From a virus: a stretch of DNA of 64,000 nt. Each line of letters opens with the position of its first letter. Position 1 is the first letter of the stretch. The notes below the pieces were generated by a model, which was not told the origin of the DNA, ran no database searches, and worked only from the letters and a program-made list of their open reading frames with translations. Shown piece by piece: positions 4,417-49,253 of this stretch. The stretch spans positions 1 through 64,000 of IMG/VR virus record IMGVR_UViG_3300034374_012521, one strand, 5' to 3'. The position numbers and the translations under genes were made by a program.

Positions 4417-5481
4417 CTAATTGCTTAATGGTGCTTTAATTGCTGGATGTGATTCATATCCATCTAGGATAAAATCTTTGGATCTTAGTATCGGGATAAT
4501 ACTTCCAAAGTCTTTGGGATCAACATGATCCTTAATTAAGATTTTTGGTAATTGATAAGGCTCCCTACGAATCTGTTCTTCTGCTTGGTTTATGTGATTC
4601 TTATAGAGATGAACATCACCCAAATTTCCAACCAGTTCATCTGGGACCATATTAACCTCTTTGCCAATGATTATTAGCAATAGAGCGTAACTAGCAATGT
4701 TAAAAGGCAAACCTAAAAAGGTGTCAACTGATCTTTGGTTCCACATAAGGGAGATAGTTCTTCTAGGAAACCCCCTTTCATCCAGATCCTCGTGATAAAG
4801 ATTTTTTGCATAACTTTTATCCTTGCCCTCATTTTTAGACCAAACTTCCCTTCTTTCGTTGAGGTCCATTTCTCTTGTATAAACTTGAAACCCATAGTGA
4901 CAGGGTGGAAGAACCATTTGATCTAATTCACCGACATTCCAAGCGCTAACCATTAATCTCCTTGAGTCTGGGTTTGTTTTAAGATCGTTGATTAGGTTTT
5001 GGATTTGGTCAACATATCCGGACTGTAAATAAAAACCTTCGGTTCCATCAGTATTTCCTTCTATCCAGGTATCACCTTTCCAATTCCTCCACTGAGAACC
5101 GTAGATTGGACCTAATTCACCCCACTCCTTAGCAAACTCATCATCGTTTTTGATTTGTTGGATAAACTCATCCATTGATAAAGAATTATCCATTGCAAAT
5201 GCCTTATAATTCTTATATGCATCACCATTCCAGATGTTACACCCATTATCTACCAAATACTTAATGTTAGTATCACCATTTAAGAACCACAATAATTCAA
5301 CCACCATGGTTCTGAATGCCATCTTCTTGGTAGTGAGTAGAGGGTATCCCTCCGACATCTTATGACGGATTTGTCTTCCAAATACTGAAATAGTCCCGGT
5401 CCCAGTTCTATCTGATTTTTCTACTCCATTTGAAAGTATATCATTCAGTAATTCTTGGTATTGTTTATCTATATTATTCAT
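4417..5481 (-). CDS. thyA: thymidylate synthase
   Basis: Makes dTMP from dUMP with methylenetetrahydrofolate. Diagnostic segments are SDRTGTGT near residue 23, SRRLMVSAWNV, the catalytic Cys in LPPCHYGFQ, and QRSVDTFLGLPFNIASYALL. The dUMP-discriminating Asn is present in LPFN, so this is a true ThyA, unlike the second homologue at 17519-18310. At 354 residues it is longer than the usual 264 because of two insertions. Its ATG lies within the end of the thioesterase gene. Confidence 0.95.
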   Translation of the reverse strand: MNNIDKQYQELLNDILSNGVEKSDRTGTGTISVFGRQIRHKMSEGYPLLTTKKMAFRTMVVELLWFLNGDTNIKYLVDNGCNIWNGDAYKNYKAFAMDNSLSMDEFIQQIKNDDEFAKEWGELGPIYGSQWRNWKGDTWIEGNTDGTEGFYLQSGYVDQIQNLINDLKTNPDSRRLMVSAWNVGELDQMVLPPCHYGFQVYTREMDLNERREVWSKNEGKDKSYAKNLYHEDLDERGFPRRTISLMWNQRSVDTFLGLPFNIASYALLLIIIGKEVNMVPDELVGNLGDVHLYKNHINQAEEQIRREPYQLPKILIKDHVDPKDFGSIIPILRSKDFILDGYESHPAIKAPLSN

Positions 5482-6488: not shown

Positions 6489-6490
6489 AT

Positions 6491-6646: not shown

Positions 6647-6651
6647 CTGAA

Positions 6652-7020
6652 TCACTTAAAAAGCCTTCCCAAAAGATCAAGTTGGAATTGCTCCCATCTA
6701 GTTAGGTTTGAACCCCAAAGCTTTCTTTCCGAAAAATCATCATATCGATTCCATAATGGGTAATATAGGAACAGAAAATCCCATTCATCGATAGTGAACC
6801 TTTTTACTGAGGTTTTGTTGGGAAGCCTAAACTCAAAAGATAATAGCGAGTAAAACCTAAAGTTTACATTAAACGTGAAAAAATTAAACCCCCATGATTC
6901 GTCTCCGTCGTGAAGATATAAGTTTAATAAATGGAATTTGAAGTTCCATCTCCTGGTCTTCCAGGAGATTTTTTCTAGAAATGTTTTGAATCTCATAATG
7001 ATAGAAAATGATCCTATCAT
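6652..7020 (-). CDS. hypothetical aromatic-rich protein
   Basis: 122 residues, strikingly rich in Phe, Trp, Tyr and Leu. A second Met at residue 9 (MRFKTFLEK) is an alternative start. No family recognised. Confidence 0.5.
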   Translation of the reverse strand: MIGSFSIIMRFKTFLEKISWKTRRWNFKFHLLNLYLHDGDESWGFNFFTFNVNFRFYSLLSFEFRLPNKTSVKRFTIDEWDFLFLYYPLWNRYDDFSERKLWGSNLTRWEQFQLDLLGRLFK

Positions 7021-7049
7021 TAAACCGTTTTGATTACCTAAAGTTTCGA

Positions 7050-7997: not shown

Positions 7998-8011
7998 AAT
8001 TGAAATTTATT

Positions 8012-8791
8012 TTACCAACACTCTATTGAGGGATAATATATATCCGAATCTACAAACTGGAATTGGAATGAGTGCTCTCTGACTCTAAATTCCATATTTC
8101 TGATTTTTTTATAATGGTCTGAGATACTTATAAATTCCCTGGCAACCATTGGCCATATGGTATAGTTTGATATGGATGTTTCTTCTGAGGTAAGTAAGTG
8201 ATCCACATCATATAAATCTAATTCTTTCCTGAGGTGCAAGTTTTTAACCACTGCATCATGACAAGAGTGATTATAGATAACGAAATTGGCGGTGCTAGCT
8301 TGGGTTCTGGGTTTTGCTAGATGTTCTGTTAATATTTCAATCTCGCTAAAAAAATAGTGGTTCCCAATAAGTACATCCCAGTCAGCCGGCAATTCCTGGA
8401 ATACCTTTTTTATCTTTTCAAACCAACCTTGTGCTAATTCGCAATCATCTTCCAAAACCAAAATAGGTTCCCCTATTTTCTTAGCTAATTTCATGCATTT
8501 GAGATGTGATTTGAAAATTCCATCTGGTGGGAATTTTTCAACTATCCCATTAACTCTCTCCACATTCAGTTTTTGGAAAAGGTTATCATTTTTGATCTTG
8601 AAATTCATCCACCGATCTTCCCTTTCGGGTAGGTTAATAACCAAAGCTTTACTTGGAAGATCAAAGGCCTTTAGATCCTTTCGAAACCCACCCTTACAAT
8701 CTACAATTTTTGCAAGATCATCCTCCTTGTTATTCAAAGACATCTGTGAAAAATATCCTGGACTAACTCCTGGGGATAACGGCGTTCTCAT
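8012..8791 (-). CDS. GT25-family (LPS-type) glycosyltransferase
   Basis: The core has the GT25 pattern: KALVINLPEREDRW at the start of the fold, KSHLKCMKLA, then PILVLEDDCELAQGW with the acidic motif. It probably transfers a hexose to an envelope or virion glycan. The ATG at 8791 is preferred because the longer frame (8833) would run into the upstream gene. The region before the fold (MRTPLSPGV onward) is a short extension. Confidence 0.75.
   Translation of the reverse strand: MRTPLSPGVSPGYFSQMSLNNKEDDLAKIVDCKGGFRKDLKAFDLPSKALVINLPEREDRWMNFKIKNDNLFQKLNVERVNGIVEKFPPDGIFKSHLKCMKLAKKIGEPILVLEDDCELAQGWFEKIKKVFQELPADWDVLIGNHYFFSEIEILTEHLAKPRTQASTANFVIYNHSCHDAVVKNLHLRKELDLYDVDHLLTSEETSISNYTIWPMVAREFISISDHYKKIRNMEFRVREHSFQFQFVDSDIYYPSIECW
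8035..8045 (-). promoter_or_regulatory. putative late promoter, GGATATATATT
   Basis: Lies 37 nt upstream of the GH19 gene start, embedded in the last codons of the GT25 gene. Confidence 0.45.
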
Positions 8792-8798
8792 ACTTCTA

Positions 8799-9206
8799 TT
8801 ATTCGTTCCAATCGGGATCCCCCCAATCATCATACGATTCGTCCAAATAGAAATCTGTTTCCTCGTGGGTTAATTCCCATCCGAATCCATCCTTAACCCA
8901 AACTTTTTCTGAAAGCGGGATCTCTATTCTTATTTCTACCCTCGAGCCATCAATTATTCCACCGATTACCTTTTCAAGGGCTTCAAGAATTTCTACGAGA
9001 TCCTCGTCTGGGATTTTTTTGCTTGATTCTGATTCGCAGTAGATTTCTAACCTGTTACTTTCATTGATATCCAGGCAATCTAAAAAGAGAGATCTTGTTT
9101 GTGGATCTATAATTAATTTTTCAATATTAGATCTAACAAGATCCAAAGACTCCCTTTGGAATTTACCCTTGCTTACTAAATCTATATGATAAAGACAGAC
9201 ATCCAT
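8799..9206 (-). CDS. hypothetical acidic protein, 135 aa
   Basis: Predicted alpha/beta with a very acidic, Asp/Trp-rich C-terminus (DDWGDPDWNE). No family recognised. A GTTATATAG element lies 29 nt upstream. It ends 7 bp before the GT25 start. Confidence 0.5.
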   Translation of the reverse strand: MDVCLYHIDLVSKGKFQRESLDLVRSNIEKLIIDPQTRSLFLDCLDINESNRLEIYCESESSKKIPDEDLVEILEALEKVIGGIIDGSRVEIRIEIPLSEKVWVKDGFGWELTHEETDFYLDESYDDWGDPDWNE

Positions 9207-9235
9207 ATATGTTTTTAAACTTTGCTTTTATTTGA

Positions 9236-9244
9236 CTATATAAC
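9236..9244 (-). promoter_or_regulatory. putative late promoter, GTTATATAG
   Basis: A slightly degenerate copy of the element, 29 nt upstream of the gene starting at 9206. Confidence 0.35.
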
Positions 9245-9248
9245 AAGT

Positions 9249-9818
9249 TTAAAAAATAGATTTCTTACCTATAAATCTCGTGCAAAAAGTTTTTCTGTGA
9301 TATTTGGTTAACCCAAATTTTTCGATGGCTTCTATATGAGCCTTAGAGCCATAACCAGCATTGCTTTCCCATAAATATTCTGGAAATTGCTCTCCTAGTT
9401 TTTTCATTAATCTGTCTCTGGTAACCTTTGCTATGATTGATGCAGCTGCTATCGATTGAACTTTACTATCCCCTTTCACTATGCATTCGTAAGGAATGCC
9501 TTTGTGACCTGGGAATTTATCTCCATCCACTAAAAGTTTGGTTGGTGTATTTTCTAATTCGTCAATGGCCTTTTTCATGGAAACGAAAGTGGCTTGGAGA
9601 ATATTAATTCTATCGATCTCTTCGGATTCTACAATACCGATTCCCCAACTTATAGAGTTGCTCATTATAATATCATAAGCTTGATCCCTTTTCTTAGGGC
9701 TAAGCTTTTTGCTATCTTTGATAAGCTCATGCTTGAATCCTTCCGGTAAAATAACAGCTGCAGAAACAACGGGTCCAGAAAGACACCCTCTTCCTACCTC
9801 ATCAATTCCCGCTTCCAT
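9249..9818 (-). CDS. rnhB: ribonuclease HII
   Basis: Cuts RNA in RNA:DNA hybrids and at single ribonucleotides. Motif I GIDEVGRG (residues 4-11) supplies the first Asp and Glu; LVDGDKFP and SIAAASIIAKVTRD hold the remaining conserved acids and Ser. Length of 189 is normal for the family. T4 itself uses a different RNase H (5'-3' exonuclease type), so a bacterial-type RNase HII is a replacement or addition. The start overlaps the upstream gene by 17 bp. Confidence 0.92.
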   Translation of the reverse strand: MEAGIDEVGRGCLSGPVVSAAVILPEGFKHELIKDSKKLSPKKRDQAYDIIMSNSISWGIGIVESEEIDRINILQATFVSMKKAIDELENTPTKLLVDGDKFPGHKGIPYECIVKGDSKVQSIAAASIIAKVTRDRLMKKLGEQFPEYLWESNAGYGSKAHIEAIEKFGLTKYHRKTFCTRFIGKKSIF

Positions 9819-12722: not shown

Positions 12723-13793
12723 TTATTTTTCTAGCTCTACCTCTTCTATTCCAGGAGATAGAATGTTACCCATAAAAGCCGTAATTAAATAGGGGTCTGC
12801 GTTAGATCCTGGTCTTCTATCCTCTAGGTATCCTATCCAATTCTTTTCTGTGTCTAGAGGGATTCTAATTGATGCCCCTCTATCACTCACACCCCAAGAG
12901 AACTTTTCAATGCTTTGTGTTTCGTGGTTTCCAGTTAACCTTTGGTCATTGTCCGACCCGTAGATTTTAATGGCTTCCAAATGCTTACTCTCCATATCTT
13001 TGAAGAGCCTTTCGAAGTATTCCTTTCCACCAGTGGTTCTCATAACCTCGTCTGAGAAGTTTACATGCATTCCAGAACCATTCCAGTCTTCTTCTGCACC
13101 CATTGGTTTGGGGTGGTAATCAACTTTAACCCTATATTTTTCTGCAATTCTACTTAGCAGAAATCTAGAAACCCAAAGATCGTCTCCTGCGTTTTTATTT
13201 CCTTTGGAAAAAACTTGATATTCCCATTGTCCAAGCATAACCTCAGCGTTTGTTCCGGTAATATTAATTCCACAAGATAGACATGCGTCCATATGCTCTT
13301 CTGAGATCTCCCTTCCTGCACTATATGGATGACCAACTGAACAATAGTACTTTCCTTGTTTTTCTGGTGTGTTGAAATTTTCAAACCCTAGGGGCTTGTC
13401 ATCCTTTCTATTGTGCCACCTTAGAACATACTCTTGTTCAAAGCCAAACCAGTGTCCTTCAGTATCCACGTTGATTGAAGATCTTGTATTGGTTTCGTGT
13501 GGGGTTCCATCAGGATTCATTACTTCGCATAATACCAAATATGAGAAACCCCCTCTTAGTGGGTCTTGGTATAATTTAACTGGTTTAAGTATGCAATCAG
13601 ATGAGCTTCCCTCTGCTTGGTTGGTTGAGCTACCGTCAAAAGACCAAGAGGGGATGTCTTCTAATTTTGGCATCATTAAAGCTAGAGGATTCTCGATGCT
13701 ATCAGCTCCGAAATCCAATACTTTTACTTTTGACCTTAAATTAGGTTCTGGTTTATAACCATCTAGCCAGATGTATTCGAGTTTAATCTTCAT
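12723..13793 (-). CDS. glutamine synthetase, type II (eukaryote/Bacteroidota-like)
   Basis: Joins ammonia to glutamate using ATP. Opening EYIWLDG, PSWSFDGSSTNQAEG, FGFEQEYVL, NWNGSGMHVNFS-type (here DWNGSGMHVNFS) and the late DRGASIRIP segment with RRPGSNADPY are all intact, so the enzyme should be active. At 356 residues it has GSII length, far shorter than the 450-plus of GSI. GSII occurs in several Bacteroidota, so host acquisition is likely. It could raise glutamine supply for nucleotide synthesis and for carbamoyl phosphate, the donor of the two carbamoyltransferases here. Confidence 0.93.
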   Translation of the reverse strand: MKIKLEYIWLDGYKPEPNLRSKVKVLDFGADSIENPLALMMPKLEDIPSWSFDGSSTNQAEGSSSDCILKPVKLYQDPLRGGFSYLVLCEVMNPDGTPHETNTRSSINVDTEGHWFGFEQEYVLRWHNRKDDKPLGFENFNTPEKQGKYYCSVGHPYSAGREISEEHMDACLSCGINITGTNAEVMLGQWEYQVFSKGNKNAGDDLWVSRFLLSRIAEKYRVKVDYHPKPMGAEEDWNGSGMHVNFSDEVMRTTGGKEYFERLFKDMESKHLEAIKIYGSDNDQRLTGNHETQSIEKFSWGVSDRGASIRIPLDTEKNWIGYLEDRRPGSNADPYLITAFMGNILSPGIEEVELEK

Positions 13794-15032: not shown

Positions 15033-15980
15033 TTAGTTGTAGTATCCTTTTTCTTTTAACATGTCTAAATGTTGTATGATTTTTTCCAATTCTTGTTCCC
15101 TCTTTTCCCCATGCAACACCTTAATCAAATTTTTATCCTTTGGAATTTTATAAAAATCCCCATTTAGAGTATCCTGTTCTACTTCGGTTTCGAAAAAATG
15201 CTTCACCGTGTTATGTCCATCATTGATGTTTATGTAGCTCATTGGCAAACCCCCACCTCCATATTTCCAGATCAAGACGTTCATAGGGGTTTCGTCTTGG
15301 AATGGTGAGTAGTGGTACACATCAACAACCTTCCACATCACATGCAGAAATTCTTCAAGTATAGTGAAGAAATTTTTACAAGACCTGTTGAAGATAAAAA
15401 GGTTCCCTGTCCTATATTCATCCCTCTGCTCAGCAGAAACCTGTAGAAATTGCATCAAAGGCCATTCAAGAGTTTTTGTTAAATCGCATTCTGGCCAGCA
15501 CCCCTCAAAAGGATTACCTCTCATAACACCATCATCGTCAGGTACCATAACGAATTCGTGTGGTCCCTTGGTTGCTAATGGTATATTTTTTATCCTGCTT
15601 GAGTAATCGAAGATCTCATCAATGTTCGGACAGGCAATACTATCACCATCGATATAGCAAGCTTCGTCATAACCAAGGTCGATTGTTTTTAAACATGCCT
15701 CGCTTTTCCTTGTCATGACCTGGAAGCTTCTTGGGTTTCTTCTATTTACATAAAAATTACCTCCCCCCTCATTTTGGAAGCTCTCACCATCCTCATATAG
15801 ATCATAGTTTATTCTATGGAAATAAACACCCTCCGGCATTTCCAACCCAAGATCAGCCGGAAAGTAATTAATGCAAAATATGTTTACGTCATAATTAGAA
15901 TAGCGTTTCAGGCTTTTCGCTAACCATAGCGCTAGGTAATGGTAATTTTCGGTTGTGATAGAAACGTAGGATCTTCTCAT
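15033..15980 (-). CDS. GT-A-type glycosyltransferase
   Basis: The DxD-type motif is in EACYIDGDSIACPN (about residue 114); the segment SYVSITTENYHYLALWLAKSL at the start is the usual nucleotide-sugar strand and helix. It most resembles the glycosyltransferase families of phage and giant-virus sugar islands. ATGA overlap with the FkbM/GT34 fusion gene upstream argues for joint expression. Substrate unknown. Confidence 0.7.
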   Translation of the reverse strand: MRRSYVSITTENYHYLALWLAKSLKRYSNYDVNIFCINYFPADLGLEMPEGVYFHRINYDLYEDGESFQNEGGGNFYVNRRNPRSFQVMTRKSEACLKTIDLGYDEACYIDGDSIACPNIDEIFDYSSRIKNIPLATKGPHEFVMVPDDDGVMRGNPFEGCWPECDLTKTLEWPLMQFLQVSAEQRDEYRTGNLFIFNRSCKNFFTILEEFLHVMWKVVDVYHYSPFQDETPMNVLIWKYGGGGLPMSYININDGHNTVKHFFETEVEQDTLNGDFYKIPKDKNLIKVLHGEKREQELEKIIQHLDMLKEKGYYN

Positions 15981-17518: not shown

Positions 17519-18310
17519 CTAGATGTTTTTTTGCTTTAGAATTGCCTTTTGGCTGTTAAAACAATGTAGAGAAACTATGTGCATTGCATAGTAACCGGGA
17601 ACTACATTTTCCCAAGACTTGTCCCTTTTTTTCATTTCTTCAATAACCCATAGCACCTTTCTGCAGGCAAGATAGATGTCATCTCTAAAATGTCTCATGA
17701 TGTCGCATGATCTTATAAAATAAGAAACGTGAAGGAAATCTCCTCTTCTCATGAAATGATATCCTATGGTACATGGGACTCTTTCCTTGTGATGAGCTCC
17801 AGTATCCTCTGGAAACCAAATGGGTAGAAACGCTTGTCTTGTAAAAGGTTCTCTTTCTAAAAGATCCAAGACATCATTAAAATCCCCATATTCATACCTA
17901 ATACCCTTCAGGATTTGCTTGGTGAGTTTACCGGTAGAATTATTTATTGGAGCTTTCTTTGGCCAAATTCTTTCTGGGTATGTGTGAGAAAACTTTTCTT
18001 CCTTCTTGAATTCGCTATTTTTGTTCTGGTTGAAAGGCCACCATTCGTTTGACGGTGGAGGGTTAAGAGGTACTCCACCAACTCTTTCGTCAAAGTGATT
18101 GTCCGCCCATGGTAAATTTGGTTTAATTTCTTTTACAAGTTCCTCAATCGTAGGTGGAATGAACATTTGGAATGAGTGATTCATTACTTCCCACATGTCA
18201 TCGGGGGATACCACTCCTTGCCATCTTTCTGTTTTTACGACAGATCCATAATCATAAAGTCTCTTTTTTGACCATTCAATAGCTTCCGACGGCTTGTAAA
18301 ATGTTTTCAT
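17519..18310 (-). CDS. thymidylate-synthase homologue, probable dCMP hydroxymethylase
   Basis: Clearly of the ThyA fold: RQAFLPIWFPED aligns with the SRRLMVSAW loop, then the catalytic-Cys segment VPCTIGYHF and the RSCDI segment that binds the nucleotide. In IRSCDIMRHFRDDIYLA the position of the dUMP-selecting Asn (LPFN in true ThyA) is Asp. The same Asn-to-Asp change sets dCMP preference in T4 gp42. This predicts a dCMP-directed enzyme making hydroxymethyl-dCMP. A true ThyA is already present at 4417. The carbamoyltransferase at 19584 is in the same run of genes. Confidence 0.7.
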   Translation of the reverse strand: MKTFYKPSEAIEWSKKRLYDYGSVVKTERWQGVVSPDDMWEVMNHSFQMFIPPTIEELVKEIKPNLPWADNHFDERVGGVPLNPPPSNEWWPFNQNKNSEFKKEEKFSHTYPERIWPKKAPINNSTGKLTKQILKGIRYEYGDFNDVLDLLEREPFTRQAFLPIWFPEDTGAHHKERVPCTIGYHFMRRGDFLHVSYFIRSCDIMRHFRDDIYLACRKVLWVIEEMKKRDKSWENVVPGYYAMHIVSLHCFNSQKAILKQKNI

Positions 18311-18368
18311 CTAATAGTTATTGTATCCCTCTTACTTAATTATCTTTTCTAGGTTTCCTCTTTTTGGA

Positions 18369-18905
18369 TTAAACCTCAAATAAATTCCCACTGTGGAATT
18401 TCTCCTTTATTTCACCCTTAAACATTGTACCCGGTTTAACATAAAAATCAGAAACAGTAACTTTTTCAAAATGTTTGAAACCTTTTTGCCTTAATATTTT
18501 TTCTCCCTCTTCTTTTTCAAAAGAGTTGGGAAATTGTACACTAATGATCTCAGTTCCCCATCTGGAGGAATTGAATCCACTTAACACCCTTGATGGAAAT
18601 TCTACGTTTTTAATGAGAAGAATCTTTACCTCGGTGACGTTGGTTCTTTCAAGGAACCCGTCAATGGTAACCCCGTCTTTTTTCTCACAATCAATAAGCT
18701 TTGCTAATCTTCTATAGAGTCTTAGCTTAATAAATTCTTCCTCGTCCGGCTGTAAGCAAAGAACCTTCCAGTTTCTTGTTTCGTATTCATATAAATGATT
18801 TTCGAAAGCATAATTATCTGTTGCACCGTATTCCACGCAACCAGACCTAAATTGGTCGGGGTCAATCAGTTGTACAAGACGGTCACAGATTAAAATTTCT
18901 CCCAT
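18369..18905 (-). CDS. FkbM-like methyltransferase domain protein
   Basis: 178 residues. VEYGATDNYAFENHLYEYE parallels the SAM-binding opening of FkbM methyltransferases (EIGAxDG), followed by WKVLCLQPDEEEF and a late KILLIKNVEF strand. The glycine-rich loop is degenerate and the acidic partner is replaced, so it may be a non-catalytic relative. The ATG at 18905 follows a terminator T-run directly; a longer frame (18935) would start within the terminator. Confidence 0.6.
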   Translation of the reverse strand: MGEILICDRLVQLIDPDQFRSGCVEYGATDNYAFENHLYEYETRNWKVLCLQPDEEEFIKLRLYRRLAKLIDCEKKDGVTIDGFLERTNVTEVKILLIKNVEFPSRVLSGFNSSRWGTEIISVQFPNSFEKEEGEKILRQKGFKHFEKVTVSDFYVKPGTMFKGEIKEKFHSGNLFEV

Positions 18906-18943
18906 AAAAAAAGCAAGTTTGAATTTATACAACAAACTTGCTT
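18904..18943 (-). terminator. intrinsic terminator abutting a start codon
   Basis: Minus-strand stem AAGCAAGTTTG / CAAACTTGCTT followed by seven T, for the nuclease gene at 18965. The T run ends in the ATG of the next gene (TTTTTTTATG), so that gene is expressed by read-through. Confidence 0.8.
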
Positions 18944-18964
18944 TAAAATTTCAGCTTTTCCTAA

Positions 18965-19549
18965 TTATTCACAGGTAGTAAGCTTGTAATCTCTAAAAGA
19001 GCTTTTGGTTGGTTTGGAGTTTGGGAAATAGTAGCATTCAAGCAAGGAGCCTTCAAAGAAAATTTTCTTGGTAAATCCAGTGGGTACGGTTGCTCCTGTT
19101 GGTAATATCTCAGGGTTGTCATAATGGACCTTGATAATTACACACACCTCTCCTTCGTTTGCAAGTTCTCTTTCGTATGCCTCAAGCAGTCTCCAGAGTC
19201 CCCTATTTAAATCTTGGTGCTGCAGTGCACAGTTTAGATACGAAAAAGTCTGCTTTAGCATTTCTTTTGTACAATTAAAGTCTGCAGCAGGAGCCATATG
19301 TCCCTTATCCCAAACATTCGATTTGTAATCAGCATTGTCCGAGGTTAGAACTGAATCATTTTTATAAAAGTTCATACCCTTCCTCGATGCGTTACCGTTA
19401 GGACAAAGAACTTTGTATTCAACCAAAAGTGGCTGTTCTAGGACTTCCGAATATGTAACAGTATAGATTCCAGCATTAATGTTCACTTCCTCCCTTTGAG
19501 CAAAAATAACGGTTGGAAGTAATAGTAGCAGGACTAAAATTTTTCTCAT
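18965..19549 (-). CDS. exported DNA/RNA non-specific endonuclease (NUC1 family)
   Basis: A Sec signal peptide (MRKILVLLLLLPTVIFAQ, cleavage likely before or at Gln18) is followed by a His-Me finger nuclease domain. WDKGHMAPAADF holds the DRGH-like catalytic His, and SYLNCALQHQDLNRG supplies the metal-binding Asn. The domain is shorter than bacterial NucA. It would act in the periplasm or outside, perhaps degrading incoming rival DNA or scavenging nucleotides. FAQ-type cleavage sites are typical of Bacteroidota. Confidence 0.85.
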   Translation of the reverse strand: MRKILVLLLLLPTVIFAQREEVNINAGIYTVTYSEVLEQPLLVEYKVLCPNGNASRKGMNFYKNDSVLTSDNADYKSNVWDKGHMAPAADFNCTKEMLKQTFSYLNCALQHQDLNRGLWRLLEAYERELANEGEVCVIIKVHYDNPEILPTGATVPTGFTKKIFFEGSLLECYYFPNSKPTKSSFRDYKLTTCE

Positions 19550-19565
19550 TGCAAAAATTTTTCCT

Positions 19566-19576
19566 CTATATATTTA
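19566..19576 (-). promoter_or_regulatory. putative late promoter, TAAATATATAG
   Basis: 16 nt upstream of the exported nuclease gene. Confidence 0.45.
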
Positions 19577-19583
19577 AGATTGT

Positions 19584-21257
19584 TTATCTCCTGGTGATAA
19601 CTATGTTGTTTATGACCAAGACATGTATATTATTCACATAGAAGCTTTTTATAGCATCTGCTGGGGATTCTACTATAGGTTCTCCTTTGCCATTAAAAGA
19701 GGTGTTTAGAAGTAAGGGGATTCCGGTTTTTTCATAGAATGCTGAAATAAGAGAATGGTACCTCTCATTCATCTCTTTTGTTACCGATTGGTATCTAGAA
19801 GTATGGTCGATGTGAGTAACCCCTGGAATTTTACCCCTCCATTCCTCTTTCACTTTTGTAGTTATAAGCATATATGGTGAAAAACAATCAAGGTCAAAAA
19901 TTTCCTTCCTATGCTCTTCTAATACGGAGGGTGCAAAAGGCCTATACCACTCCCTGTTCTTAATCTCTGAATTTATATACCTTTCAACCCAAGGTGAAGA
20001 TGGATTAGCTAATATGGATCTGTTTCCAAGAGCACGTGGACCAGTTTCACTTCCCCCCTGAAACCAGCCAACCACTTTATTCTCTACAAGGCATTGACTA
20101 ACATAGTCTAATAGGTTCTCCCAATTAACAAATTCTTGAAATTGGATATCTGGAATATCACTTTCGAAGAAATCATTTATCGCCTCTTGGTTTGAATACT
20201 CTCTTCCTAGATATGGCTTGAGATACTTTCCGGTTGGTAAATTACCCTCGACTATCTGGCCAAACCAAGCACATCCTAACGGTATTCCGCTATCGTCTGA
20301 CGATGGAAGGTAGTACTTATTCTCAAACAAGTCTGATTTTTCTATTAGCTCGTTTGAATTACAATTTAGGAATGATCCACCAGCAACACAAATGTTTTGA
20401 GAATCAACAACCTCACTTGCTTTTTTGGTAAAATACATTAGAAGTCTTTCCTGCTCTCTTTGATAGATACCAGCAATGTTTGCTCTGGATTGAAAATCGG
20501 AAAGATAATTTATACCATCAGATGGGACTTGACCATTCGGTATAAAAACGTCATTTTCCAGAATTTCTATAAAGTCAGGAAACGAGTCTACAAATTCTCT
20601 ATCGGCATAAGATGCTAACCCCATTAACTTCCCGGATTGCCAGCTATTATTTGAAGGATCATATACAAGTTGTAAAGCCCCGGTCCCATACATAATGCCA
20701 ACTGAAACTCCACCCCCCTTATAACCATCGGTAGAAAGCTTAATCCACTTTTTATAGGATTCCTCGTAAGAATCCTTTTTAAAGTTGTATATGGTTACTG
20801 CTTCAGCTAATCTTACGTTTTCTTGTAATTCGTTTGGATCCTTTTGAGGGAACCAAGCGTTTGCTTTGGAATCTGGAGCAATCTCACTTCCAGAAGCGTC
20901 CACAACAAGTACTGCAGCATCTTCAAACCCAGAACTATAAAAGGTACTAAAAGCATGGGCAAGGTGATGAGGCATAAATTCCAACCTTCCCCTGTTTACC
21001 CCAGTAATAGATTCAAACTGCTCTCCGTATTCATCAGGCAGCTCTGTAGTACTGTAGATAAATCTGTCTACATCATCAAAAGAAATACCAGCACTTTCTA
21101 CACAATATCTCATTGATTTTTCCGGCATTTGATGTTGATATCCGCCGTAAGATTTTACTCTGGTAATTCTTTCCTCTGAGATCCCAACCAAAACCTCGCC
21201 ATCTTTAATCAAGACCGCTCCCATATCGTGACCTACTGATATCCCTAGTGAGATCAT
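19584..21257 (-). CDS. NodU/TobZ-family carbamoyltransferase (first copy)
   Basis: 557 residues in the two-domain layout of O-carbamoyltransferases. The Kae1-like N-terminal part has GHDMGAVLIKDGEVLVGISEER and the metal-binding MPHHLAHAF. The C-terminal part has the active-site GGSETGPRALGNRSILANP and REWYRPFAPSVLEE. Such enzymes use carbamoyl phosphate and ATP to carbamoylate hydroxyl groups. With a dCMP hydroxymethylase-like gene 1.3 kb away, 5-hydroxymethylcytosine is a good candidate acceptor; a sugar or glycan is the alternative. Confidence 0.88.
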   Translation of the reverse strand: MISLGISVGHDMGAVLIKDGEVLVGISEERITRVKSYGGYQHQMPEKSMRYCVESAGISFDDVDRFIYSTTELPDEYGEQFESITGVNRGRLEFMPHHLAHAFSTFYSSGFEDAAVLVVDASGSEIAPDSKANAWFPQKDPNELQENVRLAEAVTIYNFKKDSYEESYKKWIKLSTDGYKGGGVSVGIMYGTGALQLVYDPSNNSWQSGKLMGLASYADREFVDSFPDFIEILENDVFIPNGQVPSDGINYLSDFQSRANIAGIYQREQERLLMYFTKKASEVVDSQNICVAGGSFLNCNSNELIEKSDLFENKYYLPSSDDSGIPLGCAWFGQIVEGNLPTGKYLKPYLGREYSNQEAINDFFESDIPDIQFQEFVNWENLLDYVSQCLVENKVVGWFQGGSETGPRALGNRSILANPSSPWVERYINSEIKNREWYRPFAPSVLEEHRKEIFDLDCFSPYMLITTKVKEEWRGKIPGVTHIDHTSRYQSVTKEMNERYHSLISAFYEKTGIPLLLNTSFNGKGEPIVESPADAIKSFYVNNIHVLVINNIVITRR

Positions 21258-21533: not shown

Positions 21534-21896
21534 TTAAAAAGTTTTGATCAATCTTTTTGCTGTAGAGTAGTTTGTTGCTAGAGGTATATTGTGATGGTCA
21601 CAAACTCTCATCAACATTTGTACATCAGGTTCGTGAGGGTGTTTCCCAAGAGGGTCTCTAAAAAATATAACAAGGTCTATCTCCTTTACAGAAGCTAAGG
21701 CAGCAATTTGAGCATCCCCTCCGTGAGGTCCGGAGAGCAATTTTTTTACTTTGAGACCTGCTTGTTCTACGTGAGTTCCGGTTGTTCCGGTTGCCACTAT
21801 TTCAACATCCCTCCTTTTAAAGAATTCTATGTTATGCATGATAAAAGAAACCATAGAGGCTTTCTTCCCGTCATGTGCAATTACAGCTACTTTCAT
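21534..21896 (-). CDS. mgsA: methylglyoxal synthase
   Basis: Converts dihydroxyacetone phosphate to methylglyoxal and phosphate. Catalytic landmarks are retained: AHDGKKASMVSF (His near residue 9), ATGTTGTHVE, LSGPHGGDAQIAAL, FFRDPLGKHPHEPDVQML with the active-site Asp and His, and LATNYSTAKRLI at the end. At 120 residues it is close to the usual length. The ATG at 21896 overlaps the cupin stop (ATGA); an upstream start is not needed. Very unusual in a phage. Confidence 0.88.
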   Translation of the reverse strand: MKVAVIAHDGKKASMVSFIMHNIEFFKRRDVEIVATGTTGTHVEQAGLKVKKLLSGPHGGDAQIAALASVKEIDLVIFFRDPLGKHPHEPDVQMLMRVCDHHNIPLATNYSTAKRLIKTF

Positions 21897-22279
21897 TGTT
21901 GGGAATCTCCTCTCCAAACACGGTATGAGTCAGAGTCAAAATGTTCTGTTGAAACTTCGTAAACTACACCATCCTCCAAAGCTTCTAATTGGTGAGGCTG
22001 ACCTGGTCTTTGTCTTACAGAATCTCCTACCCTGAGAGTTTGTTCGTTTACCTCCGCTGTTTCGGTATCGATCCATCTATAAATGAAAGATCCCTCTTGA
22101 ACGTACCAAGTTTCATCCTTAACCATATGGTAATGCATTGAGAACTTAGCACCCTTTTTAAAGCAAAGAAGTTTACCGCAATAAAGTTCGTTGTTTTCGA
22201 ATATAATCTCGTGTCCCCAGCCTTTGGGTATATTACATCCGGGGCACTCCTTAGCATTAATTACTTTTGGCTTTTCCAT
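21893..22279 (-). CDS. cupin-domain protein (mannose-6-phosphate-isomerase-like)
   Basis: KGWGHEIIFENNELYCGKLL recalls the C-terminal cupin of type II phosphomannose isomerases, followed by the metal-binding MHYHMVKDETWYVQEG and GQPHQLEAL. Three His and one Glu are in place for a metal site. Stop overlaps mgsA by 4 bp. Possibly a sugar-phosphate isomerase/epimerase in the glycan block. Confidence 0.75.
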   Translation of the reverse strand: MEKPKVINAKECPGCNIPKGWGHEIIFENNELYCGKLLCFKKGAKFSMHYHMVKDETWYVQEGSFIYRWIDTETAEVNEQTLRVGDSVRQRPGQPHQLEALEDGVVYEVSTEHFDSDSYRVWRGDSQQ

Positions 22280-22742: not shown

Positions 22743-23573
22743 TTAGGAATCTGAAACAGCTCTTCCCTTCATTTTCTCCCAATCTTTCTCTGGACGTACC
22801 TCTAAATTAGTAATCCATCCCCCTTCGATTGCGTTCATTCTCATACCTCTGGATTCTGCAAACTTTATAAGTGCATTTACATCTTTTGGGAAGCAGGTAC
22901 CTCCATATCCCATTTTTCCATCTGGACCCGGGACGTGAAGATGTGAATCTCCAACTCTACCGTCAGAAGCAAATCCGTTCATTGCATCCTCCCAATTAAT
23001 TCCTATTGCACTACCAAGCCTATAAAACTCGTTCATGATAGAAACCTTTGTAGCAAAGAATGTGTTGTTCATGTACTTAATGTACTCTGCTGTCTTCGAG
23101 TCTGTCAATATGAAATTTCTATTCATAAATCTATCCTCAAAAAGGGATTTTACTCTTTCATTTAATCTAGAATCCCCTCCCAAAATTATCCTTGCCTGTG
23201 TTAACATATCCAGTTTAGCAGTTCTTTCGGTAAGGAATTCTGGGGAAAAAATTATATTAAAACCAAATCTTTCTGATAGAGATTCGGTGGTTCCTGGAAG
23301 TACTGTCGATTTAATAATGAATATCTGGTCTTTATTTGGAAATATAGAACCAAAGAAGTTTTCAATAAATGAAAGGTCTTGAGTTCCGTCCATCCTCATT
23401 GGAGTTGGTAAGCAGACAAAAATAAATTCTTGCTCTAAGGTTTCCTCTAAATTATGTGTAGCTTTTAACGGATCAATGTCAAATATTTTAACATCCGCTG
23501 TTGGTGAAAAGGCAAATGCTTGGGACTCTCCAACGAATCCGTTACCGATTATTCCTACTGTTTTCTTTCCCAT
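22743..23573 (-). CDS. UDP-glucose/GDP-mannose dehydrogenase, short form
   Basis: A Rossmann start (VGIIGNGFVGESQAF), the substrate-binding FSPEFLTERTA, the mid-domain KYMNNTFFATKVSIMNEF and the catalytic Cys in GGTCFPKD are conserved. At 276 residues it ends just after the catalytic domain and lacks the C-terminal UDP-binding domain of the ~430-residue family, so it may act with a partner or be a short, dimer-dependent form. Would supply a uronic-acid nucleotide to glycan synthesis. Confidence 0.8.
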   Translation of the reverse strand: MGKKTVGIIGNGFVGESQAFAFSPTADVKIFDIDPLKATHNLEETLEQEFIFVCLPTPMRMDGTQDLSFIENFFGSIFPNKDQIFIIKSTVLPGTTESLSERFGFNIIFSPEFLTERTAKLDMLTQARIILGGDSRLNERVKSLFEDRFMNRNFILTDSKTAEYIKYMNNTFFATKVSIMNEFYRLGSAIGINWEDAMNGFASDGRVGDSHLHVPGPDGKMGYGGTCFPKDVNALIKFAESRGMRMNAIEGGWITNLEVRPEKDWEKMKGRAVSDS

Positions 23574-32687: not shown

Positions 32688-32706
32688 TTGAATTAATTTA
32701 TTTTTG

Positions 32707-34834: not shown

Positions 34835-35950
34835 TTATTTCGACTCCACAAAGTATCTAAGTTTAGAGAATTCCAAAAACCTGGATGTATCTATATCATA
34901 CTCATCATGAGACAGCATTCCATCACCATCCAAGGATTCTATCGAGAACAAGAATCTAATTTTACCTACTCTCCAGATAGCATCTGGAATTTTGTACCAA
35001 GCCCATCCGCCATGGCTTAGTGTGTTGCTTTCCTCCATCATTAATTCACTCCCACATAGAAGTTTGAATTTAATTCTAACTAATGAAAATGGAGAATCCG
35101 AGCTTAAATGTAGAAGTATTCTTATATCACTAATATTATCCTTATTTACGTATGGGGAACACACAGAAGTTGTGTAAAGAGTGTATTCGTTCTTGTTATA
35201 TGCTAGCTTATCAATATCCCAATTTTCCCCAATTGGACCTCCGAAAAAATGGTCCAACTCATCGTTGGACTTAAAGATGGAATTCTCCCTTCCTGTGTTA
35301 GCGATGGAAGTTATGAAATCCTCAAAAACCATGTTCGGATATTTAGATACGAAATCTCTATTTTTCCTAATATTGAGATTGGGTATAAGGGATCTAACCC
35401 GGGAATTCATTCTCAGTATAAAAAGATGACTGTATACCCAATGAGATCTTGGGACTGAGAAAAAAATAGAGTCTAGATCCTTTCGTAATAATTCTTCCAG
35501 GAAAGAATTAATTTTTTTGCCAAAATCCTTAGGGAATATAAAGTCAGTTTCCATATAAACACAAAAATCATACCCCTTAGCAAAAGAAGCACCCAAAGAG
35601 GGGATAAAGAGGGATACAATAGCAGGAGTAAAATCTATCCAGCCTTTATAATCATAATATAAGGTAGATCCAGAAGGACCCTCTGTATCAACCCACTTGT
35701 AGCTAGGTATGTTTTCTACTAACGGTACAATTTCAGGGTTGAGAATATTTGAATCTTTAAAAGCAGATGTGTTGGTGTCGTTATAGAGGTAAAGGTCCAC
35801 CTTGTTTTTTATGCTGTCTGGGCAATCAAAGTGTGTCATTAATGTAACATCCCACCCAATACTCTTAATGGAAGAGATTATCTCAAGAAGATCCTTTTGT
35901 TTTTCTTCAGTGCTTGGAAATGATGATAATATAAAGTTACAATCTATCAT
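34835..35950 (-). CDS. putative GT-A-type glycosyltransferase
   Basis: 371 residues. CVYMETDFIFP (about residue 130) holds an acidic motif in the position of a DxD site, flanked by SFAKGYDF and FGKKINSFLEEL. Overall it resembles glycosyltransferase-like proteins of marine phage sugar islands, but the similarity is weak by eye. It lies 12 bp from the second carbamoyltransferase, so both may work on one glycan or modified base. Confidence 0.5.
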   Translation of the reverse strand: MIDCNFILSSFPSTEEKQKDLLEIISSIKSIGWDVTLMTHFDCPDSIKNKVDLYLYNDTNTSAFKDSNILNPEIVPLVENIPSYKWVDTEGPSGSTLYYDYKGWIDFTPAIVSLFIPSLGASFAKGYDFCVYMETDFIFPKDFGKKINSFLEELLRKDLDSIFFSVPRSHWVYSHLFILRMNSRVRSLIPNLNIRKNRDFVSKYPNMVFEDFITSIANTGRENSIFKSNDELDHFFGGPIGENWDIDKLAYNKNEYTLYTTSVCSPYVNKDNISDIRILLHLSSDSPFSLVRIKFKLLCGSELMMEESNTLSHGGWAWYKIPDAIWRVGKIRFLFSIESLDGDGMLSHDEYDIDTSRFLEFSKLRYFVESK

Positions 35951-35962
35951 AGATGGATTAAA

Positions 35963-37582
35963 CTAGTTGGCGAACACATTGGTAATAGTGTCATTTTTCC
36001 TCCTGGAAATTATATAATCTTCAGTTGCAATATAATCAAGAGAATCGTCGAGTAGATGTTTAATGACCTGGTGTGGATAATTATTAATAGGTTCCCCATG
36101 AGCATTTAATGAAGTATTCAGAACAACCGGGATTCCAGAAATATTATGATATGCCGAGATCAATTTATGAAAGTGTGGGTTTCTTTCCTTGTTTACTATC
36201 TGTGGCCTTGCTGTACCGTCTTCTGCATGTACAACTGCTGGTATTCTACCGAGCCATTCTTCCCTTGTGTCGTAGCACAAAGTCATAAATTCAGCAGTGT
36301 GTTTTGATTTCTCAATATGGAAAACATCTTGGCTGAATTCTTCTAACACCGAAGGGGCAAAAGGCATAATCTCGGTTCTTCTGAGCTTTTCATTAAGCCT
36401 TCTGTGTGTATCTTTATCAGTTGGCTTTACAACTATACTTCTATTTCCTAATGCCCTTGGACCATATTCTGTTCTTCCCACGAATACTCCTACAACTGAT
36501 CCTTCATCTACGAGTTGTGCAACCCTTTCGTATGTCATAGGTTCGGTTTTCAGATTCCCCTGGTTTTCACTAATGATAGAATCCCATGCTTCCCTACTAT
36601 GGCTTTCTCCAAGGAAAGCATTCTCGAGTCTAAATGACTCCGTTATTTCTCCAAGATCGTTTGCAACTTTAATTGCTGCACCCAGAGCTAAACCACTGTC
36701 AGACATTGCTGGGTGAATGTAGATTTCATCAAAAAGACCCAAATCGTTAATAAACATATTCATCTTAACATTTGCAAAGAGTCCACCAGAAAAACATATT
36801 TTTCTGTATTCGGGGAACCTTCTACTAAGGTCTTCGAGGAAATCCCTCATAGTTTCATCTGTTACCTTCTGAAGGGCAAAAGCAAAATCCGCCCTCAACT
36901 GCTTATCAGTAAAAACACCACGGGGCTTGAGAATATGTTCGCAGATATAGTGGAACCTAGCTTCGTGATTTGCAGGGCGAAAGTTCAGATCTCCACCATA
37001 ATGTATACAGTCCTTTATCAGCTTGTAGATCATCTCGTCGTGTCTACCATGAGCAGCCAAGCCAACTATTTTACCCTCATCCTTAAGCATCTTCCATCCT
37101 AGGTGTGTACAAGAAGATGCCCAAAGTCCTGCTAAAGATGCAGTAGTTGGAATGTGTTGTGAATGCACCACCTCATAATCCCCATCCTCGCAAAGCAAAA
37201 TTTTTCCTCTACTCCTGTTGCCTTTGCCGTCGTGGGAAACACTAAGAACTTTGCCTTTCATCCCAGAGGTAAAGTATGATCCAAGGGTGTGAGATAAGTG
37301 GTGTGATACCTCAGTTGTTCTTCCCATAAAGAACCCAATGTTCTGTTTAACAATCTCCTTTTTATAAAATGAAGAGATTGCGAAATAATCCACATTCGAA
37401 AGATCAATACCGTGATCCCTCTTTACCACTTCAAGACAATTGGTTGGGGGGGCAAGTACATTATAACAGGATTTTATCCCAGTAAGCTTTTCTTCCTCAT
37501 AAATTCCAAGTATTTTACCATCTTTTAATACAGCAACAGAAGTGTCGTGCGAGCAAAAACCAATTCCTAAAATAATACTCAT
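35963..37582 (-). CDS. NodU/TobZ-family carbamoyltransferase (second copy)
   Basis: 539 residues with the same domain order as the copy at 19584: GIGFCSHDTSVAVLKDG at the start, VSHHLSHTLGSYF as the metal-binding segment, and EYGPRALGNRSIVVKP with EIMPFAPSVLEE in the catalytic domain. The two proteins differ throughout, so they are ancient paralogues or separate acquisitions, not a recent duplication. One may act on modified cytosine and the other on a glycan. Confidence 0.88.
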   Translation of the reverse strand: MSIILGIGFCSHDTSVAVLKDGKILGIYEEEKLTGIKSCYNVLAPPTNCLEVVKRDHGIDLSNVDYFAISSFYKKEIVKQNIGFFMGRTTEVSHHLSHTLGSYFTSGMKGKVLSVSHDGKGNRSRGKILLCEDGDYEVVHSQHIPTTASLAGLWASSCTHLGWKMLKDEGKIVGLAAHGRHDEMIYKLIKDCIHYGGDLNFRPANHEARFHYICEHILKPRGVFTDKQLRADFAFALQKVTDETMRDFLEDLSRRFPEYRKICFSGGLFANVKMNMFINDLGLFDEIYIHPAMSDSGLALGAAIKVANDLGEITESFRLENAFLGESHSREAWDSIISENQGNLKTEPMTYERVAQLVDEGSVVGVFVGRTEYGPRALGNRSIVVKPTDKDTHRRLNEKLRRTEIMPFAPSVLEEFSQDVFHIEKSKHTAEFMTLCYDTREEWLGRIPAVVHAEDGTARPQIVNKERNPHFHKLISAYHNISGIPVVLNTSLNAHGEPINNYPHQVIKHLLDDSLDYIATEDYIISRRKNDTITNVFAN

Positions 37583-38226
37583 ATCCCTAATATGTTGTCA
37601 AATAAATCCTCGTTGCTTAAGCCAAGCCAGTTCTGTGGGTGATGCCAACTTGCATAGTAGGAAGCGTGATTTTCAAAAATACCTCCAGATTCCCAAAAGT
37701 CCCACGTGTTGCTTTGGATGTCGTGTTTTCCAATGTCGTAGGATGCATAGATTCCATTAGCTTCACAATATCCAATAAAATCCTTTTGTGGTTCAATAAT
37801 CTGAACTCTCCCTGAATAGTTTTTCTGGAGCCTGTCGTGAAACCTCGAGGAAACCAAAATGTGGCTACCGGTTTTCTTACCAAAGCTTTCTGCTTTTAAA
37901 AGCCATCTATAATTTACATCATAAGAGGGGGAGTCAAAGCGTAGAAGGATCTTTTTATCTTGCTCGTTATATGTGTGTTGGTAAAGCAAAACTGGCTCAA
38001 AATTTTCTATCCCCCAGATATTTACTTTCCACTTGGTTCTAAATTTTCTTAGATATTTATACCACGTAAATGGCTTGAATTCATGGTTTGAATAGATGAT
38101 TCCCCATTCTCCACCTATATCCTCATAAAGTTCAACCAAGAAATTTTCGGAGTGAAGATCTCCTATTTCTATTTTAGGGCCATCGATAAAATCTACTGAG
38201 GCCTTTATCTTTTCAAAATCTGTCAT
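37579..38226 (-). CDS. hypothetical protein, 215 aa
   Basis: Alpha/beta and rich in aromatic residues, with WHHPQNWLGL near the end. It overlaps the carbamoyltransferase start by 4 bp (ATGA), which implies coupling; it may be a partner or glycan enzyme. No family recognised. Confidence 0.55.
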   Translation of the reverse strand: MTDFEKIKASVDFIDGPKIEIGDLHSENFLVELYEDIGGEWGIIYSNHEFKPFTWYKYLRKFRTKWKVNIWGIENFEPVLLYQHTYNEQDKKILLRFDSPSYDVNYRWLLKAESFGKKTGSHILVSSRFHDRLQKNYSGRVQIIEPQKDFIGYCEANGIYASYDIGKHDIQSNTWDFWESGGIFENHASYYASWHHPQNWLGLSNEDLFDNILGI

Positions 38227-48137: not shown

Positions 48138-48147
48138 CTATATATCC
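48138..48147 (-). promoter_or_regulatory. putative late promoter, GGATATATAG, inside a stop codon
   Basis: 15 nt before the ATG of the RimK-like gene. The GATATATAG also encodes Asp-Ile-stop, the end of the mutase gene. Confidence 0.5.
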
Positions 48148-49253
48148 TCAGAGATCTTTCTTATTTCCCTCTTGGATCTTGCTAATGCACTACCTATAAC
48201 ATGGTGCATATCATAGTACTTATACTCTGCTAAACGCCCTCCAAAAATATATTTGTCTGAAATCTGTTCAGCAAGTTTTTTATACCTACCATATATCTCC
48301 TTGTTTTTGTCGTCAGAGACTGGATAGAATCTTTCCTTACCAACCTCCCACTCTGCTGGATATTCCTTAGTAATAACAGTTTTATCTGTCTTAGTCCAAT
48401 CAAAGTGCTTGTGCTCACATATTCTAGTCCAAGGTATTTCAGCCTCCGTATAGTTCACAATTGCATTGCCCTGATAATCCTCTATATCCAACACCGATGT
48501 TTCAAAGTCTAGACTTCTGTATTCTAGCACCCCCTCGGAGAATTCAAAAAATTCATCTATGGGGCCGGTAAAAACTATCTTATGTGCCTGGGATTCCCAG
48601 TATTCTCTTTCCTGGAGGAAATCCACACCAAACCTTACTTCAACGTCTCCTTGAATGTTCTCTATCATCTTGGTATATCCACCTATAGGAATTCCCTGAT
48701 ATCGATCAAAGAAATAATTCTCGTCGTAGGTTAATCTGATTGGAAGTCTCCTGATTATAAATGATGGAAGTTCCTTAGGATCCCTGCCCCATTGCTTTGT
48801 TGTATATCCTTTTATGAATGTTTCATAAATTTCCTCACCAACCTCATTTAAAACCCATTCTTCAAGATTGGATGGGTTCTTGATTTTTACCTTTACCTCA
48901 TCGAGTTTTTTTCTGGCTTCCTCTGGGGTTGATACACCAAATAGCTGGTGAAGTGTCATTAGGTTTATTGGGAATGAATACATTCTATTCCCATGCCTTA
49001 CCTTGGGTTTGTTTACGTAATTGTTGAACTCTGCAAATCTGTTTACGTATTCCCAAATACCCTTGTCCGAGGTATGAAAAATGTGTGGGCCGTATTTGTG
49101 GACCTCTATTCCCTCAACATTCTCTGTGTAGCAATTTCCACCATTGTGGTCTCTCCTTTCGAGGATAATGCATTTCTTGCCTGCCTCAGTTGCTTGTTGT
49201 GCAAATACACTACCGAAGAGACCTGATCCAACAATAATATAATCGAAGGTCAT
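48138..49253 (-). CDS. glf: UDP-galactopyranose mutase
   Basis: Interconverts UDP-galactopyranose and UDP-galactofuranose with FADH2. FAD-binding start YIIVGSGLFGSVFAQQ, then GGNCYTE, HKYGPHIFHT, GYTTKQWG and late GGRLAEYKYYDMHHVIGSAL. 371 residues is normal. Implies that the phage supports a galactofuranose-containing glycan; neighbours are a methyltransferase and a GT92 enzyme. Confidence 0.93.
   Translation of the reverse strand: MTFDYIIVGSGLFGSVFAQQATEAGKKCIILERRDHNGGNCYTENVEGIEVHKYGPHIFHTSDKGIWEYVNRFAEFNNYVNKPKVRHGNRMYSFPINLMTLHQLFGVSTPEEARKKLDEVKVKIKNPSNLEEWVLNEVGEEIYETFIKGYTTKQWGRDPKELPSFIIRRLPIRLTYDENYFFDRYQGIPIGGYTKMIENIQGDVEVRFGVDFLQEREYWESQAHKIVFTGPIDEFFEFSEGVLEYRSLDFETSVLDIEDYQGNAIVNYTEAEIPWTRICEHKHFDWTKTDKTVITKEYPAEWEVGKERFYPVSDDKNKEIYGRYKKLAEQISDKYIFGGRLAEYKYYDMHHVIGSALARSKREIRKISEDI

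What the first reader, a model, noticed from the sequence alone, without database searches (positions are those of the whole stretch)
17519..21257. Possible carbamoyl-hydroxymethylcytosine pathway: dCMP-hydroxymethylase-like enzyme with two carbamoyltransferases
The ThyA homologue at 17519-18310 has Asp where true ThyA (4417-5481) has the dUMP-selecting Asn; the same change defines T4 gp42 as a dCMP hydroxymethylase. A NodU/TobZ-type carbamoyltransferase lies 1.3 kb upstream, and a divergent second copy is at 35963-37582. As I recall, metagenome work has linked phage carbamoyltransferases to conversion of 5-hydroxymethylcytosine to 5-carbamoyloxymethylcytosine. The window also carries glutamine synthetase, which would supply glutamine for carbamoyl phosphate. 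Together they suggest a hypermodified genome; the two copies could do sequential or different steps.
Basis: partly seen in the sequence, partly recalled or inferred. Interest (0 to 1): 0.87.

Follow-up and report, generated by a model that had tools for sequence, protein, structure and literature searches.

The report
hmC enzyme, unrelated sugar carbamoyltransferases
This virus of bacteria probably makes its DNA with a modified cytosine using a T4-like enzyme, but the two nearby carbamoyltransferases are of the kind that decorate sugars and do not look like the known enzyme that carbamoylates that cytosine, so the proposed combined pathway is unlikely.

Summary
The ThyA homologue (17519-18310, "HM") has Cys146, Thr147 and Asp177 (E. 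coli ThyA numbering), exactly as in T4 gp42 and the hydroxymethylases of known 5hmC phages; Asp177 is invariant in 34 homologues. The same phage record encodes, outside the window, a T4 gp56-type dCTPase beside ribonucleotide reductase and a kinase. A T4-like route to 5-hydroxymethyl- (or 5-hydroxy-) cytosine is therefore likely.

The carbamoyl half fails four tests. (1) Both carbamoyltransferases fall outside the clade of the enzyme shown to carbamoylate 5hmC (100/100 support). (2) They keep Gly421 and Arg423, whereas the assayed enzyme has Cys and Thr. (3) Assayed-type carbamoyltransferases have a hydroxymethylase gene within 5 kb in 24/24 loci; loci found with the window's two have none in 83. 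(4) Of 37 viral records carrying HM, one has any carbamoyltransferase; the closest (HM 89% identical) lacks CT1 precisely, flanks intact.

Relatives of both sit among glycosyltransferases and sugar-nucleotide genes. Most likely they are NodU/NolO-type sugar O-carbamoyltransferases, accessory cargo beside an independent DNA-modification gene. Biochemistry is untested.

The parts
17519..18310 (-). HM: divergent TS-superfamily protein, predicted dCMP 5-hydroxymethylase (or dCMP hydroxylase)
   Evidence: phrog_160 3.7e-24; Cys146/Thr147/Asp177 pattern; 52 IMG/VR homologues, Asp invariant in 34 aligned; AF2 pLDDT 78.7, Foldseek top MilA and a phage dCMP hydroxylase
19584..21257 (-). CT1: NodU/NolO/TobZ-type O-carbamoyltransferase, both domains; accessory cargo
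   Evidence: PF16861 2e-67, PF02543 4e-27; own clade outside the assayed 5hmC clade; W408/G421/R423 kept; cleanly absent from L009
35963..37582 (-). CT2: second NodU/NovN-type O-carbamoyltransferase
   Evidence: PF16861 1e-53, PF02543 3e-32; own clade; V408/G421/R423
4417..5481 (-). Ordinary thymidylate synthase ThyA (His147, Asn177)
   Evidence: PF00303 5e-95; residues
15977..17518 (-). FkbM methyltransferase + GT34-like glycosyltransferase fusion, adjoining HM; among the HM loci present (61%) only in L009
   Evidence: PF05050 5.8e-8, PF05637 9.8e-11
15033..15980 (-). Probable GT-A (glycogenin-like) glycosyltransferase; cargo next to HM in L009 and L010
   Evidence: low-confidence model, N-terminal half matches glycogenin
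18965..19549 (-). DNA/RNA non-specific endonuclease family protein, between HM and CT1
   Evidence: PF01223 1.3e-25
22743..23573 (-). UDP-glucose/GDP-mannose dehydrogenase family protein (sugar-nucleotide gene)
   Evidence: PF00984 8e-22, PF03721 1e-18
21893..22279 (-). Cupin, sugar-isomerase-like
   Evidence: PF07883 2e-9
37579..38226 (-). 215-aa protein beside CT2, weakly similar to GT9-type neighbours of CT2 relatives
34835..35950 (-). Protein beside CT2, homologous (24-28%) to a gene in the sugar cargo next to HM in L016, L022, L023, L025, L055; function unassigned
48138..49253 (-). UDP-galactopyranose mutase
   Evidence: PF03275 8e-77; a homologue lies one gene away from a CT1 relative in L079
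49792..50571 (-). GT2/GT92 glycosyltransferase
   Evidence: PF13704 6e-13
12723..13793 (-). Glutamine synthetase
   Evidence: PF00120 4e-18

Best explanation
The window holds two independent systems. (1) HM acts on dCMP at carbon 5, most likely as a T4 gp42-like hydroxymethylase. The phage's gp56-type dCTPase would turn dCTP into dCMP, HM would make 5-hydroxymethyl-dCMP, a kinase would raise it to the triphosphate, and the phage polymerase would build it into DNA in place of cytosine, protecting against host restriction. (2) CT1 and CT2 are two-domain NodU/NolO/TobZ-type enzymes that make carbamoyl-adenylate from carbamoyl phosphate and ATP and pass the carbamoyl group to a hydroxyl on a sugar. 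They belong to a phage glycan cassette (sugar-nucleotide enzymes, glycosyltransferases, FkbM methyltransferase). CT1 landed beside HM because that locus is a site of cargo exchange. Shown: gene content, residues, phylogeny, presence/absence and synteny. Inferred: every catalytic step and the sugar acceptor.
For: HM: Cys146/Thr147/Asp177/His207 as in T4 gp42 and in the hydroxymethylase genes beside assayed-type carbamoyltransferases (23 aligned: Asp177 in all; Thr147 in all but one with Asn and one unaligned there); positions 147 and 177 are the top two linked to modified DNA in PMC8670742; Asp invariant in 34 homologues; Foldseek top hit MilA CMP hydroxymethylase; gp56-type dCTPase in the record, 33.6% to T4 gp56, 2e-26, beside RNR and an ADK-like kinase. 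CTs: assayed clade excluded 100/100; residues 421/423; hydroxymethylase within 5 kb 24/24 vs 0/83; no HM in 11 records of CT1/CT2 relatives, with positive controls; 1/37 HM records with a carbamoyltransferase; CT1 absent in L009 with flanks joined; relatives among GT2, GT4, GT9 and UDP-Galp mutase genes (L068, L079) and in HTVC008M beside glycosyltransferase, methyltransferase and UDP-glucose dehydrogenase; CT1 253 bits to NolO vs 44 bits to the assayed enzyme.
Against: No enzyme here was assayed. AU tests did not firmly reject joining either window enzyme to the assayed clade (p 0.05 and 0.22; quick tree, fewer reference rows), and the CT2 clade is the one nearest that clade. HM is only 10-15% identical to solved enzymes. 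No dCMP deaminase or MazG was found in the record. CT1 does lie 1.3 kb from HM here. Several CT1 relatives (L076-L078, L081) lack obvious glycan neighbours in the stretch read. The record may be incomplete.
Confidence: 0.68

Rival explanations
1. One reading: HM makes 5-hydroxymethyl-dCMP and CT1 and/or CT2 carbamoylate it to 5-carbamoyloxymethylcytosine.
For: HM and CT1 are 1.3 kb apart on one strand; such a pathway exists in other phages; the CT2 clade is the nearest neighbour of the assayed clade, and an AU test does not reject joining CT2 to it (p 0.22); the Acinetobacter member of the assayed clade keeps Gly421.
Against: Phylogeny 100/100, residues, genomic context 0/83 vs 24/24, 1/37 HM records with a carbamoyltransferase, and clean absence of CT1 in the closest relative.
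Confidence: 0.07
2. Glycosylated hmC whose sugar is carbamoylated: HM makes hmC, the glycosyltransferases encoded beside HM put a sugar on it, and CT1/CT2 or the FkbM methyltransferase decorate that sugar.
For: The FkbM-GT34 fusion and a GT-A gene follow HM directly in the window and L009, and other FkbM/epimerase/GT11 or aminotransferase cassettes follow HM in L028, L016, L022, L023 and L055; hmC glycosylation is the usual fate in T4-like phages.
Against: About 30 relatives have HM with no glycosyltransferase beside it; no TAGT or T4 beta-GT family match in 17 records, though the beta-GT search had no positive control; CT1/CT2 relatives occur in phage records without HM.
Confidence: 0.12
3. 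HM is a flavin-dependent dCMP hydroxylase giving 5-hydroxycytosine, as the PDB titles of phage HY126 AfhB describe, rather than a folate-dependent hydroxymethylase.
For: The second Foldseek match is 9iqu, titled phage HY126 dCMP hydroxylase AfhB, and 9iqc is titled a riboflavin-dependent monooxygenase with dCMP and FAD; it shares the TS fold and dCMP as substrate.
Against: MilA and T4 hydroxymethylase score better in the profile search (4e-5 and 1.6e-4 vs 4e-3); no residue rule separating the two chemistries was available, so this is weak.
Confidence: 0.13
4. HM is merely a thymidylate synthase variant with no role in DNA modification.
For: Homologues are annotated thymidylate synthase.
Against: A separate canonical ThyA is present in the window and in most large HM relatives; Thr147/Asp177 are conserved; dCTPase present.
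Confidence: 0.04

Closest known systems
T4 gp42 dCMP hydroxymethylase (with gp56 dCTPase)
   Same: Catalytic Cys, Thr147, Asp177, His207; a gp56-type dCTPase in the same record; TS fold
   Different: HM is a distinct divergent family with its own conserved blocks (WQG, PWADDHFxERVGG, FSHTYPERIWPK); no recognised T4 glucosyltransferase found
5-hydroxymethylcytosine carbamoyltransferase of Yang et al. 2021 (PMC8670742); relatives in phages Xp15, Acinetobacter MD-2021a, Bacteroides BF503P1
   Same: Two-domain NodU-superfamily carbamoyltransferase in a phage with a hydroxymethylase-like gene
   Different: 20.5-24.6% identity only; separate clades; G421/R423 instead of C/T; no conserved link to a hydroxymethylase or dCMP deaminase
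NolO/NodU, NovN, TobZ, GdmN O-carbamoyltransferases
   Same: Domain architecture, GPRALGNRS motif, better scores than to the DNA enzyme; glycan-gene context of relatives
   Different: Phage-borne; CT1 and CT2 form their own viral clades; acceptor unknown
MilA CMP 5-hydroxymethylase
   Same: Best Foldseek match to the HM model
   Different: 11-14% identity; acts in mildiomycin synthesis (own knowledge)

Membership tests
T4-type dCMP hydroxymethylase | Catalytic Cys146 and TS-superfamily core | tested here: met
T4-type dCMP hydroxymethylase | Asp at 177 (dCMP selection), non-His at 147 | tested here: met
   rationale
T4-type dCMP hydroxymethylase | Partner dCTPase in the genome | tested here: met
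   L003:5834-6301
T4-type dCMP hydroxymethylase | Hydroxymethyl transfer from folate (not flavin hydroxylation) | tested here: inconclusive
   fold matches to both kinds
5hmC carbamoyltransferase (PMC8670742) | Groups with the assayed enzyme | tested here: not met
   careful tree, 100/100 split; AU tests on the smaller tree weaker
5hmC carbamoyltransferase (PMC8670742) | Non-canonical residues at TobZ 408/421/423 | tested here: not met
   CT1 W/G/R; CT2 V/G/R; assayed enzyme I/C/T
5hmC carbamoyltransferase (PMC8670742) | Conserved neighbourhood with a hydroxymethylase | tested here: not met
   0/83 vs 24/24 loci; in this window alone CT1 is 1.3 kb from HM
5hmC carbamoyltransferase (PMC8670742) | Activity on 5hmdCTP or 5hmC DNA | not testable with these tools
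   -
NodU/NolO/TobZ O-carbamoyltransferase | N (PF02543) and C (PF16861) domains, GPRALGNRS motif | tested here: met
NodU/NolO/TobZ O-carbamoyltransferase | Sugar/glycan gene context | tested here: met
   window; relatives L068, L079, HTVC008M; not evident in L076-L078, L081
NodU/NolO/TobZ O-carbamoyltransferase | Carbamoyl transfer to a sugar hydroxyl | not testable with these tools
   -

The most novel reading that the evidence does not exclude
HM-made hmC carries a sugar added by the GT-A/FkbM cassette that follows HM, and CT1/CT2 carbamoylate that sugar: a carbamoylated glycosyl-hydroxymethylcytosine, a DNA modification not known to me.
Probability: 0.06. Interest if true: 0.8.

Novelty: new member of a known kind. 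Interest (0 to 1): 0.36.

Why it matters
It separates two things that look linked by proximity. A divergent dCMP-modifying TS family is widespread in large environmental phages and can be assayed directly as a marker of modified cytosine. Phage carbamoyltransferases should not be read as DNA-modifying unless they fall in the assayed clade; a hydroxymethylase within 5 kb and the TobZ 421/423 residues give a simple working rule for annotation.

Tried and rejected
Single-sequence scans with CT1 in viral and genome contigs found nothing; an alignment query worked. AU tests on the quick tree were not decisive, so a larger careful tree was built. The glycosyltransferase model was poor (pLDDT 50.9), so its glycogenin-like match is only a hint. 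PDB profile search for 34835-35950 found nothing convincing. T4 beta-GT and TAGT family searches were negative; the first had no positive control. MazG and dCMP deaminase were not found in this record. Glutamine synthetase as support was rejected: glutamine feeds many reactions. No paper on dCMP hydroxylase AfhB was found in the library.
Full report
What is there. The window is bases 1-64000 of a 118,056-base virus record, gene-dense on the - strand, with 16 tRNA genes, a B-family DNA polymerase, topoisomerase subunits and many sugar genes. HM, CT1, CT2, ThyA and glutamine synthetase are all real.

HM. HM is a very divergent member of the thymidylate synthase superfamily. Against E. coli ThyA it has Cys146, Thr147, Arg166, Asp169, Asp177 and His207; ThyA, and the window's own ThyA at 4417-5481, have His147 and Asn177. 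T4 gp42 and the hydroxymethylases of phages with the assayed-type 5hmC carbamoyltransferase have HM's pattern. PMC8670742 found positions 177 and 147 to be the two residues most associated with modified DNA. In 34 aligned homologues the Asp and the catalytic Cys are invariant. A profile of HM matches TS structures (the best is a TS Asn229Asp mutant bound to dCMP), MilA CMP hydroxymethylase and T4 dCMP hydroxymethylase. The AlphaFold2 model (pLDDT 78.7) matches MilA best, then a phage dCMP hydroxylase. The chemistry, hydroxymethyl or hydroxyl, is therefore open, while dCMP as substrate is well supported.

Supporting pathway. A protein at L003:5834-6301 (69834-70301 of the record, outside the window) is 33.6% identical to T4 gp56 dCTPase over 149 residues, E 2e-26, with shared motifs; T4-like dCTPases are among its best phage matches. 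It adjoins ribonucleotide reductase; an adenylate-kinase-family protein lies on the other side of the reductase genes. Homologues occur in the HM relatives examined. No dCMP deaminase or MazG was found in this record.

Carbamoyltransferases: phylogeny and residues. The sequence of the assayed 5hmC carbamoyltransferase is printed in PMC8670742. CT1 is 20.5% and CT2 24.6% identical to it, while CT1 scores 253 bits with rhizobial NolO. In a careful tree of 47 proteins, 11 enzymes of the assayed type form one side of a branch at 100/100. CT1 lies in a clade of 9 (100/100) and CT2 in a clade of 9 (100/97), both on the other side. AU tests on an earlier quick tree were weaker: p 0.05 for CT1 and 0.22 for CT2 joined to the assayed clade. 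CT2's clade is the nearest one to the assayed clade. At the three TobZ positions that the paper links to modified DNA (W408, G421, R423), the assayed enzyme has I, C, T; CT1 has W, G, R; CT2 has V, G, R. Mapping the paper's residue numbers onto the alignment is my inference from the motif spacing.

Carbamoyltransferases: context. All 24 viral loci of assayed-type enzymes have a hydroxymethylase-like gene within 5 kb; none of 83 loci found with CT1/CT2 queries does. The loci are not independent and some flanks are short, but the contrast is complete. Eleven records with CT1/CT2 relatives lack HM, while the same search rings in three known carriers; six of the eleven have a PF00303 thymidylate synthase over the cut-off, two of them fragments at contig or frame ends. 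Conversely, of 37 records with HM only one has any carbamoyltransferase, and that one (L025) is of the CT2 type. In L009, where HM is 89% identical and the neighbourhood is collinear, CT1 is missing and its flanking genes abut.

What the carbamoyltransferases probably do. CT2 relatives in L068 and L069 sit between glycosyltransferases of families 9 and 4 (L068 by Pfam; L069 has the same layout); a CT1 relative in L079 sits between GT2 genes and one gene from a UDP-galactopyranose mutase; the Pelagibacter phage HTVC008M enzyme sits with a glycosyltransferase, a methyltransferase and UDP-glucose dehydrogenase. The window itself has a UDP-sugar dehydrogenase, a UDP-galactopyranose mutase, several glycosyltransferases and an FkbM fusion. 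Sugar O-carbamoylation is the simplest reading. Four other phages (L076, L077, L078, L081) carry CT1- and CT2-type genes in tandem, followed by a 215-aa protein and a ClpP-like head-protease-type gene, so the two enzymes probably work as a pair; those stretches show no clear glycan genes, so the acceptor is uncertain.

Why they lie together. The stretch after HM is a cargo site: the FkbM-GT fusion plus a GT in the window and L009, a GT in L010, FkbM/epimerase/GT11 in L028, FkbM/aminotransferase cassettes in L016, L022, L023 and L055, and nothing of the kind in about 30 others. CT1 on the other side of HM fits the same turnover. This leaves room for a rival in which these sugars are attached to hmC, which I rate at about one in eight.

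Verdict. The cytosine-modification gene is a new, divergent member of a known kind. The carbamoylation of that cytosine by CT1 or CT2 is unlikely. No catalytic step was shown here.

Noticed in passing
L060:8001-9914: The HM homologue of a 430-kb phage record is 637 aa: about 374 residues with intein-like ends (Cys start, HN end) are inserted exactly before the catalytic Cys.
   Followed up: partly
L076, L077, L078, L081 (about 5000-9700 of each locus): Conserved tandem of CT1-type and CT2-type carbamoyltransferases, a 215-aa protein and a ClpP-like gene similar to window 43473-44147 (which matches phage head maturation proteases).
   Followed up: partly
window 51404-52549 and L003:6399-7811: B-family DNA polymerase domains appear split over two genes about 18 kb apart.
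   Followed up: no
L003:5834-6301 (record 69834-70301, outside the window): T4 gp56-type dCTPase homologue beside ribonucleotide reductase.
   Followed up: yes
L006, L007, L008, L065, L066 and L049, gene upstream of the HM homologue: Isolated phages with HM homologues carry an unassigned 260-350 aa gene just upstream (called pyrimidine hmase synthase in Yersinia phage P744); in L049 the upstream gene is itself a distant HM homologue, so a two-subunit enzyme is possible.
   Followed up: partly
window 21534-21917: Methylglyoxal-synthase-like domain protein conserved in 18 of 52 HM loci, often close to HM.
   Followed up: no
window 32706-32780: ARAGORN reports a tRNA with an unassignable two-base anticodon inside the tRNA array.
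   Followed up: no
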